DNA of 51,098 nucleotides, from the NCBI RefSeq assembly GCF_000423845.1, contig NZ_AUIT01000012.1, positions 1 to 51,098 on the forward strand, given 5' to 3'. Source of the stretch: Thermodesulfobacterium hveragerdense DSM 12571. GTDB taxonomy: Bacteria > Desulfobacterota > Thermodesulfobacteria > Thermodesulfobacteriales > Thermodesulfobacteriaceae. Shown here piece by piece: positions 44,339-50,857 of this stretch. Made by a program: the position numbers and the translations under genes. Every line of letters starts with the position of its first letter. Positions within the stretch are counted from its first letter, which is position 1. The notes beneath the pieces are model-generated. The model had not been told where the DNA came from. It made no database searches and was given only the letters and a program-made list of their open reading frames with translations.

Positions 44339-44412
44339 GCGCCCGTAGCTCAATCGGATAGAGCATTGGACTACGAATCCAAAGGCTGCAGGTTCGAGTC
44401 CTGCCGGGCGCG
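44339..44412 (+). tRNA. tRNA-Arg (ACG)
   Basis: Acceptor GCGCCCG pairs with CGGGCGC. D arm AGCTCAATCGGATAGAGC. Anticodon arm TTGGA-CTACGAA-TCCAA gives ACG (inosine reads CGU, CGC, CGA). T arm GGTTCGAGTCC. Discriminator G. CCA is not encoded (the next bases are CTT), unlike tRNA-Leu above. It is the left border of the secreted-protein block. Confidence 0.97.
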
Positions 44413-44485
44413 CTTGCTTTTCAAGCAATTTTCAAAGGTTTCAAGAAATCCCTCCCATGGATTTTGGCGGAAATTCGTGTCCTTT

Positions 44486-45104: not shown

Positions 45105-45389
45105 ATGAATAAGGTGTTTTTTAAAATTCTATTTTGTTTTGTTGCTTTTATGTTAGTGTTTCTTAGTGGAAGTGTTAGCATGGCTGAAGAAAGACCGATG
45201 CCTGACATGGATAAGTCTGATAATCATAAAGAGCATCACAAAAAAATGCATTGTAAAAAGGTATGTGTAGTATGGGGGACAGAGGAGGAATGTAAAATAG
45301 TTGGACCTGATAGTGAAGCTAAAACCTGCGTTCTACGTCCTGTATGTAAAAAATATGACACAATATGTCAGGAGGGACCTATACTATAG
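45105..45389 (+). CDS. Secreted six-cysteine protein, copy 1
   Basis: 94 residues. Signal peptide about 1-27 (ends SVSMA, cut before EERP). A His/Asp-rich spacer (DNHKEHHKKMH) follows, then the family core: C-x3-C, VW, EEC, CKIVGPDSEAKTC (10-11 residues between Cys), PVCKKYDTIC. Six cysteines suggest three disulfides. The His/Met-rich spacer could bind metal. Paralogous to 49391-49639 (CKIVGPDSE shared word for word) and, more distantly, to 49677-49931. No known family recognised. Ribosome binding site GGGGG about 6 bases before the ATG. Confidence 0.8.
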   Translation: MNKVFFKILFCFVAFMLVFLSGSVSMAEERPMPDMDKSDNHKEHHKKMHCKKVCVVWGTEEECKIVGPDSEAKTCVLRPVCKKYDTICQEGPIL

Positions 45390-45409
45390 AAATTTGCAGG
45401 AGGTTAACG

Positions 45410-45676
45410 ATGAAAAAAAAGAGTTTTATTCTAAGTTTTTGTTTGTTAATATGTATATTTTTAATAAAAGACCTTAAAGCTACCAACGATACAAATCAAT
45501 CGATTAGTAGTTCAACAAGTACGGTATCTTCGAATAATTATGAAATCAATAGTTCAACGAGTTCCTCAAAAAACACAGACAACCAAAACAAAGATTTCAA
45601 GGAAAGACTTAGAGGTTCGCCAAAATATAGTGTTCCTAATATTAACCGTAAAGGCCAGTATGGTCACGGTAAATAA
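45410..45676 (+). CDS. Small secreted Ser/Thr/Asn-rich protein
   Basis: 88 residues from ATG 45410, chosen because AGGAGG lies at 45398-45403; the longer frame upstream overlaps the previous gene. Signal peptide about 1-24 (FILSFCLLICIFL). The mature part has runs of Ser, Thr and Asn (SISSSTSTVSS, NSSTSSS), then a basic tail with RLRGSPKYSVPNINRKGQYG. Low complexity, no cysteine in the mature part. No function is visible. Confidence 0.72.
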   Translation: MKKKSFILSFCLLICIFLIKDLKATNDTNQSISSSTSTVSSNNYEINSSTSSSKNTDNQNKDFKERLRGSPKYSVPNINRKGQYGHGK

Positions 45677-45699
45677 CATTAATTTTTAGGAGGTGGATT

Positions 45700-45996
45700 A
45701 TGAAAAACTTAAAACTTTTGGTTGGTTTAGCAGGATTAGTAGTATTTTTATCATCCGGGTTTTGTATAGCTAAAGATTCTGCTTATGATCAGGCTTCAGG
45801 AACTTCCGGTAGTTCTTGGCAAGCAGAAAAAGATTCAGCGCATCCTGGAAATTATAAAGACCTAAATAGCTCTTGGGAAAGAGCAAGACACGAGGCAGGT
45901 CAAGGTTTTGACACCTCAAGGCCTTCAAACTTAAGTGGAGGAGGCATGCAATACATTCCAACACCTACTCCTCAAATTGATAAAGAGTTGAAATGA
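45700..45996 (+). CDS. Small secreted hydrophilic protein
   Basis: 98 residues. Signal peptide about 1-25 (GLAGLVVFLSSGFCIA, cut before KDSA). The mature part is Ser/Gly-rich and without cysteine, with the repeated words KDSAYDQASG and KDSAHPGNYKDL and a Pro-rich end YIPTPTPQ. GGAGGTGG lies before the ATG. No known family recognised. It is followed by the relic of a six-cysteine gene. Confidence 0.72.
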   Translation: MKNLKLLVGLAGLVVFLSSGFCIAKDSAYDQASGTSGSSWQAEKDSAHPGNYKDLNSSWERARHEAGQGFDTSRPSNLSGGGMQYIPTPTPQIDKELK

Positions 45997-46030
45997 TAAA
46001 AATTTAACAAAAGAAGAAGGTAAAAAACGT

Positions 46031-46230
46031 GAGGAATTTTATTTTCTTTAGAAACCGATAATAAAACTTTTCAACCTAAAAAGAAAAGGGAAAAAGTGTG
46101 TACTCGATGGAAAAACTAAAAAGAGTTTAAACAAAATGAAGTTCATCCTGGAGAACAAATTTTTACTTCTTACTATATACAAAGTCTGTAGTACAAAGTC
46201 TGTAGTGAATATAAAGAAAAATGTAATTGA
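46031..46230 (+). pseudogene. Decayed copy of the six-cysteine secreted family
   Basis: One frame reads GILFSLETDNKT, KKKREKVCTRWKN, stop, KEFKQNEVHPGEQIFTSYY, a stop at the tandem repeat, then YKVCSEYKEKCN and TGA 46228-46230. It aligns end to end with the mature part of the protein at 49677 (ILFASESDNKT, KVCAEW, FRPGEQICTIY, YVEMC). The signal peptide is gone, two stops interrupt it, and at least three Cys positions are changed (C to R or F). Confidence 0.8.
46179..46206 (+). repeat. 14-base perfect tandem duplication
   Basis: ACAAAGTCTGTAGT occurs twice in a row inside the relic gene. The first copy creates the in-frame TAG, so this duplication probably contributed to its loss. Confidence 0.85.
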
Positions 46231-46261
46231 TAACATTTTAAAATTTTGAAGGGGAAAATCT

Positions 46262-47302
46262 ATTAATACCAAAGTTTGGATCTATCAAGTTTTGTTGCTA
46301 ACTTTTTTTCTTCTCCTTTTACATAATTTACGATCATTCTCTGCTCCAGCCGAACTTTACGAAAAATTATTAAATTCAATAACTGCTGAATTAGAAGAAA
46401 TTTCTGAAAATCCTGATAGAATGAAAGAATATATACTGAAGCAACAAGATTTAACTATCCGAGATAAATACGGAGATACTTTACTTCACTATGCGGTCAG
46501 GAAAAATTATAAAGAAATCATTAAACTTTTATTAGAAAAAGGGATGGATATTAATATACCCAACAATAGAGGAGAAACTCCTTTACATAATGCGATACTT
46601 TATGCACGAGACATAACTACCATTTCTTTTCTTATTCAAAACAAGGCTGATTGTGTTTACAGAGATGGTTATGGGAAAATACCTTTATACAATTTTGTTT
46701 TTTATCCAGAAACTGTAGATCTAAAGATTATAGAAATTTTCAATCTTTGTGTACAAAAAGGTTTTAAGGTTAAAGAAAATATCGATGTAAAAACCTTAAA
46801 TGAATTTTTAAGTAGAAGGCACAAAAAAGTGGGTTTGATGTTAATCGATTGGGGTGTGCCAGTTGATGAAAAAACACTGGAAGAAGCTTTAATAAATGGA
46901 TATGAAGATGTAGTAGACGTTTTAGTGCAAAGAGGTATTAGCCCAGTAAAGAAGAACTTCATTCGTTACGTTTGTACTAATAGCGATTCGGTAAAGCTTG
47001 TTAAATTACTTGTTGAAAAAGGTAATGTGCCCACAGAAGAGGATTTAGACTTCTGTGTTTTTAAGGGAAGAAAAAATATAGCTTTGTTTTTAAAGGAAAC
47101 TCTGGAAAAAACTCAAGGGAAAAAGATAGATATTAAAAAGAGATGTTATTTAATACCTCAAGTGGGACCCTGTAAAGGACTATTTTGGGGGGCATATTTT
47201 ATACCCGGTTTAAATAAGTGTGAAAAATTTTTTTACGGTGGATGTGATGATGTGGTACCTTTTAATTCGGTTGAAGCTTGTAAAAACATTTGCATAGATT
47301 AA
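46262..47302 (+). CDS. Secreted ankyrin-repeat protein with a C-terminal Kunitz/BPTI-type domain
   Basis: 346 residues if it starts at ATT 46262, which lies 7 bases after AAGGGG and gives a normal signal peptide (NTKVWIYQVLLLTFFLLLL, cut near SFSAPA). No ATG is available in the right place; TTG 46292 is the alternative and lacks the basic N terminus. About two to three ankyrin repeats cover residues 65-150 (YGDTLLHYAVRKNYKEIIKL; NRGETPLHNAI), with weaker ones to about 280. The last 52 residues are a Kunitz domain with Cys 295, 304, 320, 328, 340 and 344. The spacings 9-16-8-12-4 compare with 9-16-8-13-4 in BPTI. GPCKG puts Lys at P1 and YGGC is conserved. It is likely exported and able to inhibit a trypsin-like protease. 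Kunitz domains are rare in bacteria. Confidence 0.82.
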   Translation: MNTKVWIYQVLLLTFFLLLLHNLRSFSAPAELYEKLLNSITAELEEISENPDRMKEYILKQQDLTIRDKYGDTLLHYAVRKNYKEIIKLLLEKGMDINIPNNRGETPLHNAILYARDITTISFLIQNKADCVYRDGYGKIPLYNFVFYPETVDLKIIEIFNLCVQKGFKVKENIDVKTLNEFLSRRHKKVGLMLIDWGVPVDEKTLEEALINGYEDVVDVLVQRGISPVKKNFIRYVCTNSDSVKLVKLLVEKGNVPTEEDLDFCVFKGRKNIALFLKETLEKTQGKKIDIKKRCYLIPQVGPCKGLFWGAYFIPGLNKCEKFFYGGCDDVVPFNSVEACKNICID

Positions 47303-47323
47303 AAATTTGAGAGGTCTATAAAT

Positions 47324-49315
47324 ATGAGATCGAGTTCTTTAATCATATCTATAATCCTTTTGTGTCTCACTTTTTTTAACATTAACCCTTCTATTGCAAG
47401 TCATAAGAAAATTGATAGTGATTTAGTTAACAACTTTACTTATCGTTTAACCTTTGGAAACCGTACTGTTACCTTAAAAGATGGCAAATACGAACGACCC
47501 TTTCCTGATTACCTGAAAGTTTGGGTCGAAAGATTTCTGATTAAAGATCTGAACGGAGACGGCATGCCTGATGCAGTGGTTGTTCTTGGTCAGTCTGGTG
47601 GTGGAAGTGGAATTTTCTATGAGTTAACAGCCTTGATTTCTAAAACTGATGACACTTTTTTGCAAACCAATTCTATCGTTTTAGGTGATAGAGTAAAAAT
47701 AGAAAACCTCAAAGTGGTAAATAGACCAATTTTTCCAACAGAGAGATTAGAAATCCTTCTTGATATATTGACCCACAAAGAAAGTGATCCGTCTTGCTGT
47801 CCATCTAACAAAGAACTTCTTTGTTTTGCTTTTCTTGGTATTAAGCTTATACAATGTGAAGAAGCACCGGTAGTTAAAAAACCTGCCATCTATCTTTACC
47901 ATGAAAAACCAACCGGAGTAAAAGTTAACCTTAACATTAAAGGGACTATTACAGATAGTATTCCAGAATATAAAACTGGCTGGGAGGTTAGGGTTACGCC
48001 TGATGGTAAAATCGATGGAAAATATGACTATCTTTTTTATGAAGCCCAGCTTGAAGAGACAGTTAAACTTCTTGATGAAGGATGGATCGTTCCTTATTGT
48101 AACCTTGAAAACTGGTTTGATGAATATCTTCCACAGATGGGACTGAACAAAAAAGAAATTAAAGATTTTAAGGATTACTGGCTAAAAGCTTTATCACCTG
48201 CAAGGTACTATATAATCAAAATGGTTGATAGAGAATTTTTGGATAAACACCTGAAACTCAGTATCACACCAGAGCCTCAAACACTCATCAGGGTTATTCT
48301 TTGTTTTGAAGCGGTGGATGAATACAGGGATATCAAACCACCAAAATTACAACCGATCGAAAGAAAGGGTTTTACCGCAGTTGAATGGGGAGGAATTTCC
48401 AAAGATCCCGCAATTTCTGACACTAAAACGAAGTTTGAGTATTCTTTTCTGGCTATGGATACAGGAATACTGGTATTAAGAGCAGTTGAGGTTAAAGAAC
48501 ACAGGATATCCATAAAAGTGAACACCAATGGTTGCACAGATAAAAAAACTGTCAAAGCTGAAGTAAATAAAACTTACAAAATAGACAATCAAGTTCCAAC
48601 CTACGAAGTAGTGTTTAAAAGGACAGTATCTGATAACTGTAAAGCTTTCTTGCCTGAGGGAACAGTTTTGGTTTATGACCTTCAGGAAGAATTTGGTTTG
48701 AAGATGCCGTATACAATGGAAATAAAAAATCCTGTGATTCCGATGGTTAGAGATGAACCATTCTTTATATTTTCTAACCTCTATCAACAGACAGGACCGA
48801 TAAACATTAGCATTAAGGTTGATCTCGGTACAGAACTTTTGAAAAAAAGACTTATTGATGCAACCATAAAAGCTATAAAGATGGAGATAGAAAGATATAA
48901 AGCATCGCAGCATCCTGATAAACAACAAAAAATTGCCTATTTAGAGAATGAGTTAAAGAGATTTGAAAGTATGGGAACAATGGATTACAAGCTAACCAAA
49001 CCTGAACAAACTTCAAAAGATGTTCTTGAGGTATCTAACTTTGGTCCACTAATGCCACCTGTTGAAAGAGAGGTTGAAGTGATAGTAACTAAGCCTTGTG
49101 ATTACGGTTCGATACTTGAAGTAGTTGGGATGACCAGGTCTGGACCATTTTATCATATCGCAGGAATACAGGGAGATGATTTAAGTATATTACAACCAGG
49201 AAAATACAAACTAAAGCTTTATCTTGTCTATAAAAGAGAATATTTTGGACCAATAGGAAATTATTATGTTTTTATTGATTCGGTTGAAAGGGTAGATGAA
49301 GAAAACATACGATAA
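47324..49315 (+). CDS. Large secreted multi-domain protein of unknown function
   Basis: 663 residues. Signal peptide about 1-26 (IISIILLCLTFFNINPSIAS). An N-terminal beta region contains LIKDLNGDGMPDAVVVLGQS, similar to Ca-binding Asp-rich repeats. From about 185, KKPAIYLYHEKPTGVKVNLN then EYKTGWEVRVTPDGKI and YDYLFYEAQL belong to a domain seen in secreted bacterial proteins ('KPVIYLYP' type) of unknown role. A third region (about 400-470) has NGCTDKKTVKAEV and DNCKAFLPEG, also seen in such proteins. A helical part (about 500-560) and a C-terminal beta part follow. It starts 21 bases after the Kunitz gene. Confidence 0.75.
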   Translation: MRSSSLIISIILLCLTFFNINPSIASHKKIDSDLVNNFTYRLTFGNRTVTLKDGKYERPFPDYLKVWVERFLIKDLNGDGMPDAVVVLGQSGGGSGIFYELTALISKTDDTFLQTNSIVLGDRVKIENLKVVNRPIFPTERLEILLDILTHKESDPSCCPSNKELLCFAFLGIKLIQCEEAPVVKKPAIYLYHEKPTGVKVNLNIKGTITDSIPEYKTGWEVRVTPDGKIDGKYDYLFYEAQLEETVKLLDEGWIVPYCNLENWFDEYLPQMGLNKKEIKDFKDYWLKALSPARYYIIKMVDREFLDKHLKLSITPEPQTLIRVILCFEAVDEYRDIKPPKLQPIERKGFTAVEWGGISKDPAISDTKTKFEYSFLAMDTGILVLRAVEVKEHRISIKVNTNGCTDKKTVKAEVNKTYKIDNQVPTYEVVFKRTVSDNCKAFLPEGTVLVYDLQEEFGLKMPYTMEIKNPVIPMVRDEPFFIFSNLYQQTGPINISIKVDLGTELLKKRLIDATIKAIKMEIERYKASQHPDKQQKIAYLENELKRFESMGTMDYKLTKPEQTSKDVLEVSNFGPLMPPVEREVEVIVTKPCDYGSILEVVGMTRSGPFYHIAGIQGDDLSILQPGKYKLKLYLVYKREYFGPIGNYYVFIDSVERVDEENIR

Positions 49316-49390
49316 AGTAATTTTATTTGGAAAGAAAAACAGGTTGACTAAGAAAAATAAAAGGGGGACAAAAAGCAGGAGGTGATGAAA

Positions 49391-49639
49391 ATGATGCTTT
49401 TTAAAGTTTTATTTTTCTGTATAACATTAACACTATTTAGTAGTAGTATTGTTGTTGCAGAAGTAGACTGTAAAACAGAATGTGTAGAATGGGAAACAAA
49501 GGAAGAGTGTAAAATAGTTGGTCCTGATAGTGAGTCTAAGATTTGTGAGCTTCACACTGTATGTAAAAGATATGAAAAAAGATGTAAGGAACCGAGGCTT
49601 AAGTTCGATAAAAATAGATCAGACAAAAAGTCAGAATAA
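49391..49639 (+). CDS. Secreted six-cysteine protein, copy 2
   Basis: 82 residues from ATG 49391, at the right distance from AGGAGG (49377-49382); earlier GTG and ATG codons overlap or sit too close to that site. Signal peptide about 1-22 (ends SSIVVA). Core C-x3-C, EW, EEC, CKIVGPDSESKIC, TVCKRYEKRC, six cysteines. A Lys/Asp-rich tail follows. Closest relative is the protein at 45105. It lacks the His-rich spacer of that copy. Confidence 0.8.
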   Translation: MMLFKVLFFCITLTLFSSSIVVAEVDCKTECVEWETKEECKIVGPDSESKICELHTVCKRYEKRCKEPRLKFDKNRSDKKSE

Positions 49640-49676
49640 AAATTGGAATGAAATCTGATACTTTAGGGGGAAGGTT

Positions 49677-49931
49677 ATGAAAAAATTTCTGTTTTTACTT
49701 TTTCTTTTAGTAAATTCATTTGTTTTAGTTGTTAATAACAGAATTTTATTTGCCTCGGAATCTGATAACAAGACTTCTGAGTCTAAGAAGGAATGTGAAG
49801 AGATAGTAAAGGTTTGTGCTGAATGGGGACCTCCAAAGAAAGAGTGTGCACCTAATCCATTTCGTCCTGGAGAACAAATTTGTACCATATATAGAGAATG
49901 TATTAAGTACGTAGAAATGTGTAGATTTTAA
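49677..49931 (+). CDS. Secreted six-cysteine protein, copy 3
   Basis: 84 residues with signal peptide about 1-27 (FLFLLFLLVNSFVLVV; cut near FASES). Core: KECEEIVKVC, AEW, KKEC, a longer Pro-rich loop (APNPFRPGEQ), ICTIYREC, IKYVEMC. It keeps all six cysteines, the Trp and the Tyr of the other two copies, but differs in loop length. The relic at 46031 derives from this subtype. GGGGGAAGG precedes the ATG. Confidence 0.8.
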   Translation: MKKFLFLLFLLVNSFVLVVNNRILFASESDNKTSESKKECEEIVKVCAEWGPPKKECAPNPFRPGEQICTIYRECIKYVEMCRF

Positions 49932-49984: not shown

Positions 49985-50284
49985 ATGAAACATCCAATAG
50001 TTTGTGTTTTTATTATTGCTGGGTTGTTTTTTGCATGTCAGGCACAGGCTACTTTCAGTCAAGTGCAAGATCCTACAACCAATAGTCAAATTTTTATAAG
50101 TTCTACTCTGCCTTGGAATCCTGAAAGAGCTCAATACTATGACGACAAACATGACAAAAAAGATCGTGAACGTCTTAGACCTAAGCAAGATAAGCAAGAA
50201 GATAGAGATAGACAGAGACTTCCTAATCCTCCAGAGCGACCTTTTGATAACGTGAATCCTCATCACGAAGAGTATAGAGATTAA
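49985..50284 (+). CDS. Small secreted highly charged protein
   Basis: 99 residues. Signal peptide about 1-22 (VCVFIIAGLFFACQAQA); a Cys near the end of this segment (FACQ) could also make it a lipoprotein. The mature part is dominated by Asp, Lys, Arg and Pro (DDKHDKKDRERLRPKQDKQ, DRDRQRLPNPPERP) and likely disordered. GGGAGGTG precedes the ATG. No known family. Confidence 0.7.
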   Translation: MKHPIVCVFIIAGLFFACQAQATFSQVQDPTTNSQIFISSTLPWNPERAQYYDDKHDKKDRERLRPKQDKQEDRDRQRLPNPPERPFDNVNPHHEEYRD

Positions 50285-50287
50285 TTA

Positions 50288-50857
50288 ATGAAAAGTTTCT
50301 ACAGAATAATTCCAATAGAAAGAAGTTCTTTTTCTCGTATTTATGAAGTTTTTTCTCCGGATGGTTTAAAATTAGCCAAAATAACTCAGAGTGCTTCAGA
50401 ATACGATACCATAGTAACTTCTGAAGGAAAAAGATATCTTGCAGGAGGAGATGTTGACATAAATTTATGGATGGAATGCCCCGATGGTACAGTTTATGAG
50501 GTAAAAAGACCAGACGGGATTCAAATAGGGTACACTTATTTTATTGAGTTTAACGGTAGAGAAATCATTTTAAAAGGTAGCTTAATATATGAAAATAATG
50601 AGTTTATTGGAGAGATTAAAAAAGAACCACGAAAATGGCCTGAAGGATTGATAAACAAGCTAAAAGCATTTTTCAGATTAAGAGAATGGACTTTGAAAGT
50701 AAAAACTGATATTCCAGAACACATTTTGCTTTTTATAATCTGGATAACACTGACTATTGATTTGCAAACTCAATCCGGGACACTTGTCAAGAGAATTGTG
50801 TCTCCTTATAAAATCTCTTTACAAACATTTGCCTCAATTCGTATAAAGCAGACTTAA
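50288..50857 (+). CDS. LURP-one/Tubby-like protein, 3' end running into the IS element
   Basis: 189 residues as read. Residues 1-115 show repeated beta hairpins (IYEVFSPDGLKLAKI, ECPDGTVYEVKRPDG, FNGREIILKGSL, NNEFIGEIKKE), like LURP-one/Tub_2 proteins related to phospholipid scramblases; the resemblance is modest. Residues near 138-155 (EHILLFIIWITLTID) form a membrane helix. After about residue 160 the frame enters the IS256 terminus (from about 50780) and ends at 50857 within it, so the true C terminus may have been lost. It starts 3 bases after the previous gene. It has no signal peptide. Confidence 0.6.
   Translation: MKSFYRIIPIERSSFSRIYEVFSPDGLKLAKITQSASEYDTIVTSEGKRYLAGGDVDINLWMECPDGTVYEVKRPDGIQIGYTYFIEFNGREIILKGSLIYENNEFIGEIKKEPRKWPEGLINKLKAFFRLREWTLKVKTDIPEHILLFIIWITLTIDLQTQSGTLVKRIVSPYKISLQTFASIRIKQT

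What the first reader, a model, noticed from the sequence alone, without database searches (positions are those of the whole stretch)
45105..49931. New six-cysteine secreted family with three intact copies and one relic
Proteins at 45105, 49391 and 49677 share C-x(3-6)-C-x2-W-x(4-5)-C-x(10-12)-C-x5-C-x2-Y-x3-C after a signal peptide. CKIVGPDSE is identical in two of them. A fourth copy at 46031-46230 has lost its signal peptide and several cysteines. The spread of copies around the two large genes suggests duplication with functional divergence. The fold could be a disulfide-rich inhibitor or toxin.
Basis: seen in the sequence. Interest (0 to 1): 0.75.

Follow-up and report, generated by a model that had tools for sequence, protein, structure and literature searches.

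The report
Secreted six-cysteine hairpins beside protease inhibitors
A heat-loving sulfate-reducing bacterium carries several copies of a small exported protein, absent from the family libraries searched, that is predicted to fold as a disulfide-stapled hairpin; its genes lie beside genes for known protease inhibitors, so it is probably a small protease inhibitor or a partner of one, though no activity has been shown.

Summary
Three intact secreted six-cysteine ORFs (45105, 49391, 49677) and one relic (about 46033-46227, two in-frame stops) are related, and a fifth, intact copy lies on another contig of the same genome. Pfam, NCBIfam, PHROGs and PDB sequences hold no relative. I found the family in 4 of 14 Thermodesulfobacterium genomes and, clearly, in one genome of a sister genus. 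Cysteine spacing is strict (C-x3-C-x8-C-x11-C-x5-C-x6-C; the P0003 type is longer in its first half). AlphaFold2 gives a long beta-hairpin from two different members; the register puts C1 opposite C6 and C3 opposite C4.

Context is the strongest functional clue. The 'large gene' at 46262-47302 is an ankyrin protein ending in a Kunitz/BPTI domain with Lys at P1. In another species the six-cysteine gene directly follows a secreted serpin with an inhibitory hinge. In a distant genome an ankyrin-Kunitz protein is fused to part of the other large protein (47324-49315). I read the family as probable small secreted protease inhibitors, or accessories of inhibitors, in a genomic island next to tRNA-Arg. 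This function is inferred, not shown. Nothing supports a toxin.

The parts
45105..45389 (+). six-cysteine protein P0001 (94 aa, signal peptide)
   Evidence: orthologue in T. thermophilum, dN/dS about 0.40
49391..49639 (+). six-cysteine protein P0002 (82 aa, signal peptide)
   Evidence: AlphaFold2 hairpin
49677..49931 (+). six-cysteine protein P0003 (84 aa, signal peptide, longer first half)
46033..46227 (+). relic of a six-cysteine gene, closest to P0003, one TAG and one TAA in frame; missing at this place in T. thermophilum, where 35 bp separate the two flanking genes
46262..47302 (+). secreted ankyrin protein with C-terminal Kunitz/BPTI domain (47141-47293), P1 Lys; start codon uncertain
   Evidence: Pfam Ank_2 72 bits, PF00014 31 bits over a 21-bit cut-off
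47324..49315 (+). P0006, 663-aa secreted protein, conserved partner of the ankyrin-Kunitz protein
   Evidence: homologues in all four Thermodesulfobacterium genomes with six-Cys genes; parts fused to or next to ankyrin-Kunitz in G261
45410..45676 (+). small secreted protein P0004, similar by eye to a protein of the G010 locus
45700..45996 (+). small secreted protein P0005, 70% identical homologues in the G005 and G010 loci
49985..50284 (+). small secreted protein P0007, homologue in T. thermophilum
50288..50857 (+). P0008, interrupted by the insertion sequence that ends the contig
44339..44413 (+). tRNA-Arg (ACG) at the left edge of the island

Best explanation
The three ORFs, the relic and the fifth copy on contig C6 form one orphan family of small proteins (mature size about 50-67 aa). 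Each has a signal peptide and is predicted to fold as one long beta-hairpin, probably stapled by two cross-strand disulfides (C1-C6 near the termini, C3-C4 below the turn), with C2 and C5 forming a third bond that is diagonal or between chains, and an 11-residue loop displayed at the tip. They are encoded in a secretome island with an ankyrin-Kunitz inhibitor or, in another species, next to a serpin. Most likely they act outside the cytoplasm as small heat-stable protease inhibitors, or as accessory parts of such inhibitors, the tip loop or hairpin edge blocking a protease, with paralogues diverged in target. Shown by computation: homology, constraint, export signal, predicted hairpin, gene context. 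Inferred: disulfide pairing, inhibitor function, target.
For: Family and constraint. Hairpin predicted from two different leading sequences in the same register. Window neighbour is ankyrin-Kunitz with P1 Lys, as in seven of eight Kunitz sequences aligned from the phylum. In G005 the six-Cys gene lies 37 bp after a secreted serpin (429.7 bits) whose hinge EEGTEAAAAT fits the inhibitory motif in PMC8233489. Ankyrin-Kunitz or serpin was found in the same four genus genomes as the family. On contig C6 the broken gene upstream of the fifth copy is homologous to a DUF2330-like protein that in G392 and G167 ends in a Kunitz domain.
Against: No activity data. No conserved P1-like residue in the tip loop. 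No sequence or fold relative among known inhibitors. Gene neighbourhood is indirect, and the island also holds many non-inhibitor secreted proteins. In the sister genus G020 the gene has neither a Kunitz nor a serpin gene in the 14 kb read, and PF00014 has no match in that genome. pTM is only 0.45 on a shallow alignment.
Confidence: 0.42

Rival explanations
1. Structural or accessory envelope proteins: stapled hairpins that pack on, or cross-link through C2/C5 with, the large secreted partner P0006 or with each other at the cell surface, with no protease target of their own.
For: P0006 homologues occur in all four genus genomes with the family; C2 and C5 do not face each other in the predicted register, which would suit an inter-chain bond; the locus holds many secreted proteins of unknown function.
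Against: G020 has a six-Cys gene but no P0006 match in the search, although P0006 was searched only at E 0.001. Inhibitor genes recur next to the family.
Confidence: 0.3
2. Antimicrobial or inter-bacterial toxin peptides of the beta-hairpin kind.
For: Small, secreted, cysteine-rich, multicopy with a decayed copy; beta-hairpin prediction.
Against: Net charge of the mature proteins is -1 to +2, not strongly cationic; no immunity, export or maturation gene was recognised in the loci.
Confidence: 0.1
3. Periplasmic thiol-redox or metal-binding proteins whose cysteines are used chemically and not as staples.
For: Six invariant cysteines in a sulfate reducer.
Against: No CxxC motif or other known metal or redox site; spacing fits a stapled hairpin.
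Confidence: 0.07
4. Chance similarity of unrelated cysteine-rich ORFs.
For: P0001 against P0003 alone is weak (z 2.5).
Against: Linked through the C6 copy at E 1.1e-12 and 3.8e-6; kept under constraint in several species.
Confidence: 0.01

Closest known systems
Kunitz/BPTI inhibitors (PF00014)
   Same: Small, secreted, three expected disulfides; encoded in the same island (window 47141-47293)
   Different: The six-cysteine proteins lack the Kunitz cysteine spacing and the GPC and YGGC motifs, have no Pfam match, and are predicted as a lone hairpin
Bowman-Birk and other hairpin-loop canonical inhibitors
   Same: Would work alike: a disulfide-braced hairpin presenting a loop (comparison from general knowledge)
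   Different: No C-T-[KR]-S-x-P-P loop; the loop is 11 residues and has no conserved P1-like residue
Beta-hairpin antimicrobial peptides (protegrin, tachyplesin type)
   Same: Cross-strand disulfide hairpin (comparison from general knowledge)
   Different: Longer, near-neutral charge, conserved as chromosomal paralogues with inhibitor neighbours
Serpins (PF00079)
   Same: The gene next to the G005 copy is a serpin with the inhibitory hinge, so the context is shared
   Different: The six-cysteine proteins are far smaller and unrelated in sequence

Membership tests
Kunitz/BPTI (the six-cysteine proteins) | PF00014 match with GPC and YGGC motifs | tested here: not met
   No PF00014 match for any of ten members; motifs absent
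Kunitz/BPTI (C-terminus of 46262-47302) | PF00014 above cut-off with six Kunitz cysteines and a P1 residue after C14 | tested here: met
   31.1 bits against a cut-off of 21; P1 Lys
Kunitz/BPTI (C-terminus of 46262-47302) | inhibits a serine protease | not testable with these tools
   needs an enzyme assay
Bowman-Birk inhibitor (six-cysteine proteins) | nine-residue loop C-T-[KR]-S-x-P-P-x-C | tested here: not met
   all loops are C-x11-C without this sequence; no Pfam match
Beta-hairpin antimicrobial peptides (six-cysteine proteins) | strongly cationic mature peptide | tested here: not met
   net charge -1 to +2
Cystine-knot growth-factor-like folds (six-cysteine proteins) | matching fold | tested here: inconclusive
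   Z 2.0-2.3 only, long-hairpin resemblance
Serpin (gene next to the six-Cys gene in G005) | PF00079 match and inhibitory hinge ExGTEAAAA | tested here: met
   429.7 bits; hinge EEGTEAAAAT read, motif from PMC8233489
Protease inhibitors in general (six-cysteine proteins) | inhibits a protease | not testable with these tools
   only gene context supports it

The most novel reading that the evidence does not exclude
A previously undescribed scaffold of bacterial protease inhibitor: a lone long beta-hairpin held by three disulfides, diversified by duplication inside a thermophile's secretome island alongside ankyrin-Kunitz and serpin genes.
Probability: 0.3. Interest if true: 0.7.

Novelty: new variant of a known kind. 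Interest (0 to 1): 0.45.

Why it matters
If right, it adds a very small, heat-stable hairpin scaffold to the protease-inhibitor repertoire and shows that some sulfate-reducing thermophiles carry an island with several unrelated exported inhibitors. Even if the small proteins are not inhibitors, the ankyrin-Kunitz protein with its P1 Lys and partner protein is a testable bacterial inhibitor module in a phylum where Kunitz domains are rare (9 of 395 genomes sampled).

Tried and rejected
Chance similarity: rejected. Known family: no match in Pfam or NCBIfam, PHROGs or PDB sequences (best E 0.15, to a PH-domain protein). NCBIfam matches of P0002 to Shiga toxin B (12.5-13.1 bits against cut-offs of 175-203) cover mainly the signal peptide and are noise. 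Viral contigs: two scans found nothing; plasmids nothing. Genome contigs with four close members found only the T. thermophilum DSM 1276 record; the first try with the full alignment had no stretch conserved enough. Weak profile hits in G342, G360 and G407 (E 0.005-0.008) are not members by inspection. Promoter and terminator scans gave no more sites than shuffles. Literature searches found no description of this family or of Kunitz domains in Thermodesulfobacterium, but the library is open-access only. A toxin reading was considered and set aside because no partner genes were recognised.

Full report
Observation. The window lies in a 1.73-Mb genome of 42 contigs. The three ORFs are as described. 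The spacing is C-x3-C-x8-C-x11-C-x5-C-x6-C in P0001, P0002 and all other copies except the P0003 type, which has C-x6-C-x9 in its first half. A fourth, decayed copy (46033-46227) carries a TAG and a TAA in frame; it scores 35 bits against the profile of intact copies, shuffles of it at most 12.9. A fifth, intact copy is on contig C6 (89168-89389, minus strand; L013:7166-7390) and links P0003 to P0001 and P0002. P0001 and P0003 alone would not be convincing (z 2.5 with cysteines fixed).

Distribution and constraint. A profile finds clear members in 4 of 14 genomes of the genus and in one genome of a sister genus, G020, which keeps the same cysteine spacing and a signal peptide. Elsewhere in 395 genomes of the phylum there were only weak hits that are not members. 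Orthologues in the window genome and T. thermophilum have dN/dS of about 0.40 (P0001), 0.34 (P0002), 0.28 (P0003) and 0.26 (C6 copy), computed, so the genes look constrained. The three window genes have good ribosome-binding sites. No library names the family.

Fold. AlphaFold2 on seven sequences (window plus T. thermophilum) gives a single long hairpin, strands 16-31 and 39-54, with block pLDDT 93-96 over residues 21-50. A run on the same seven sequences led by P0002 gives strands 3-19 and 27-43, the same register; the two runs are therefore not fully independent. If the strands pair symmetrically, C1 is opposite C6 and C3 opposite C4; the equal C1-C3 and C4-C6 distances of 13 agree with this in all but P0003. 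C2 then falls opposite the conserved Tyr and C5 opposite the conserved Trp, three residues apart, so a C2-C5 bond needs a bulge or lies between chains. I had no coordinates to check this. pTM is only 0.45 and the alignment is shallow. A fold search found no relative.

Context in the window. The gene at 46262-47302 is a secreted ankyrin protein with a C-terminal Kunitz domain. Kunitz domains are rare in the phylum, 9 of 395 sampled genomes. P1 is Lys in seven of the eight sequences aligned; G315 has lost the cysteine before it. The 663-aa protein P0006 has no library match, but homologues occur in all four genus genomes with six-Cys genes. In the distant genome G261 one protein joins an ankyrin-Kunitz part (37-38% identical to the window's) to a C-terminal part like P0006 (29-31%), and the neighbouring gene resembles the P0006 N-terminal part (40%). 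Ankyrin-Kunitz and P0006 thus appear functionally linked beyond this genus.

Context elsewhere. In G005 (1,634,377 bp; its size fits T. geofontis, PMC3624685, but I did not identify it otherwise) the single six-Cys gene lies 37 bp after a secreted serpin gene (PF00079 429.7 bits). Its hinge EEGTEAAAAT fits the inhibitory motif ExGTEAAAA given in PMC8233489; counting from the hinge gives P1-P1' Lys-Ser, which is my reading. Within the genus only G005 has a serpin, and only G000, G001 and G010 have the ankyrin-Kunitz protein: the same four genomes as have six-Cys genes. A Fisher test gives p = 0.001, but the genomes are related, and absence of Kunitz from the remaining genus members rests partly on the Pfam search and otherwise on the full-protein search.

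A positional parallel. On contig C6 the broken gene just upstream of the fifth six-Cys copy is 43-44% identical over 179 residues to a DUF2330-like protein of G392 and G167. In those genomes that protein ends in a Kunitz domain and lies beside a secreted ankyrin protein. In the window genome a six-Cys gene thus stands where those genomes have a Kunitz domain. This is suggestive only; T. thermophilum has a DUF4139 protein at that place.

Island. In G010 the Sir2-like gene and tRNA-Arg are followed within about 100 bp by the dtd-like gene, an empty site. In the window genome the cluster, about 6.7 kb on C11 and about 2.8 kb on C6, appears to fill this gap. The window's last 321 bases are identical to part of an insertion sequence in G013 and interrupt P0008; a further piece of P0008 is at the end of C6. 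That C11 and C6 join here is inferred from the gene order in T. thermophilum. In T. thermophilum the 20-bp end of the tRNA gene is repeated about 0.7 kb upstream of the first six-Cys gene, with other genes between that repeat and the tRNA. The site looks like an integration hotspot.

Mechanism. Shown by computation: one family, a signal peptide in each, constraint, a predicted hairpin, recurrent inhibitor neighbours. Inferred: disulfides, protease target, paralogue specialisation. The tip loop has no conserved P1-like residue, so if these proteins inhibit, either each loop has its own target or the hairpin acts as an accessory part. I put inhibitor or inhibitor accessory at 0.42, and a structural role or partner of P0006 at 0.3.

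Verdict. A real, new, narrowly distributed secreted family, best read through its neighbours as part of a protease-inhibitor island. Interest is moderate: the scaffold would be new if activity is shown; at present the function rests on context.

Noticed in passing
window 46262-47302; L016:9996-11075; L079:9301-10803; L077:8564-9808; L078:8142-9599: Bacterial Kunitz domains fused to secreted ankyrin or DUF2330-like proteins, with P1 Lys kept; in G261 the ankyrin-Kunitz protein is fused to part of the P0006 family.
   Followed up: partly
window 44339-44413; L064:1195; L067:3170-3360: The tRNA-Arg site is empty in G010, holds this island in the window genome, and in T. thermophilum has a 20-bp repeat of the tRNA end with further genes inserted, including a TraD-like or coupling-protein-like one by eye (L065:5957-7255).
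   Followed up: partly
window 50778-51098 and L013 end: An insertion sequence identical over 321 bases to one in G013 ends contig C11 and interrupts P0008; more of P0008 lies at the end of contig C6.
   Followed up: yes
window 46250-46295: The ankyrin-Kunitz gene has no ATG, GTG or TTG at the expected place; an ATT at 46262 lies about 8 bases after an AGGGG motif, a possible rare start codon.
   Followed up: no
L013:7415-8496: A DUF2330-like gene broken into pieces upstream of the fifth six-Cys copy; homologues in G392 and G167 end in a Kunitz domain.
   Followed up: partly
L014:11876-12130: The T. thermophilum orthologue of P0003 has two extra adjacent cysteines in the tip loop (SNPCCPGEQ) and Tyr in place of the conserved Trp.
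   Followed up: no
L014:12532-14436: T. thermophilum has an extra secreted TPR-PDZ protein between the P0006 and P0002 orthologues that the window lacks.
   Followed up: no
L015:9453-10175, L016:4679-5401, L050:6177-6944: Similar secreted proteins (SIMPL, DUF541, in L015 by Pfam; the other two by eye) recur near the six-Cys genes in three loci, including the sister genus.
   Followed up: no
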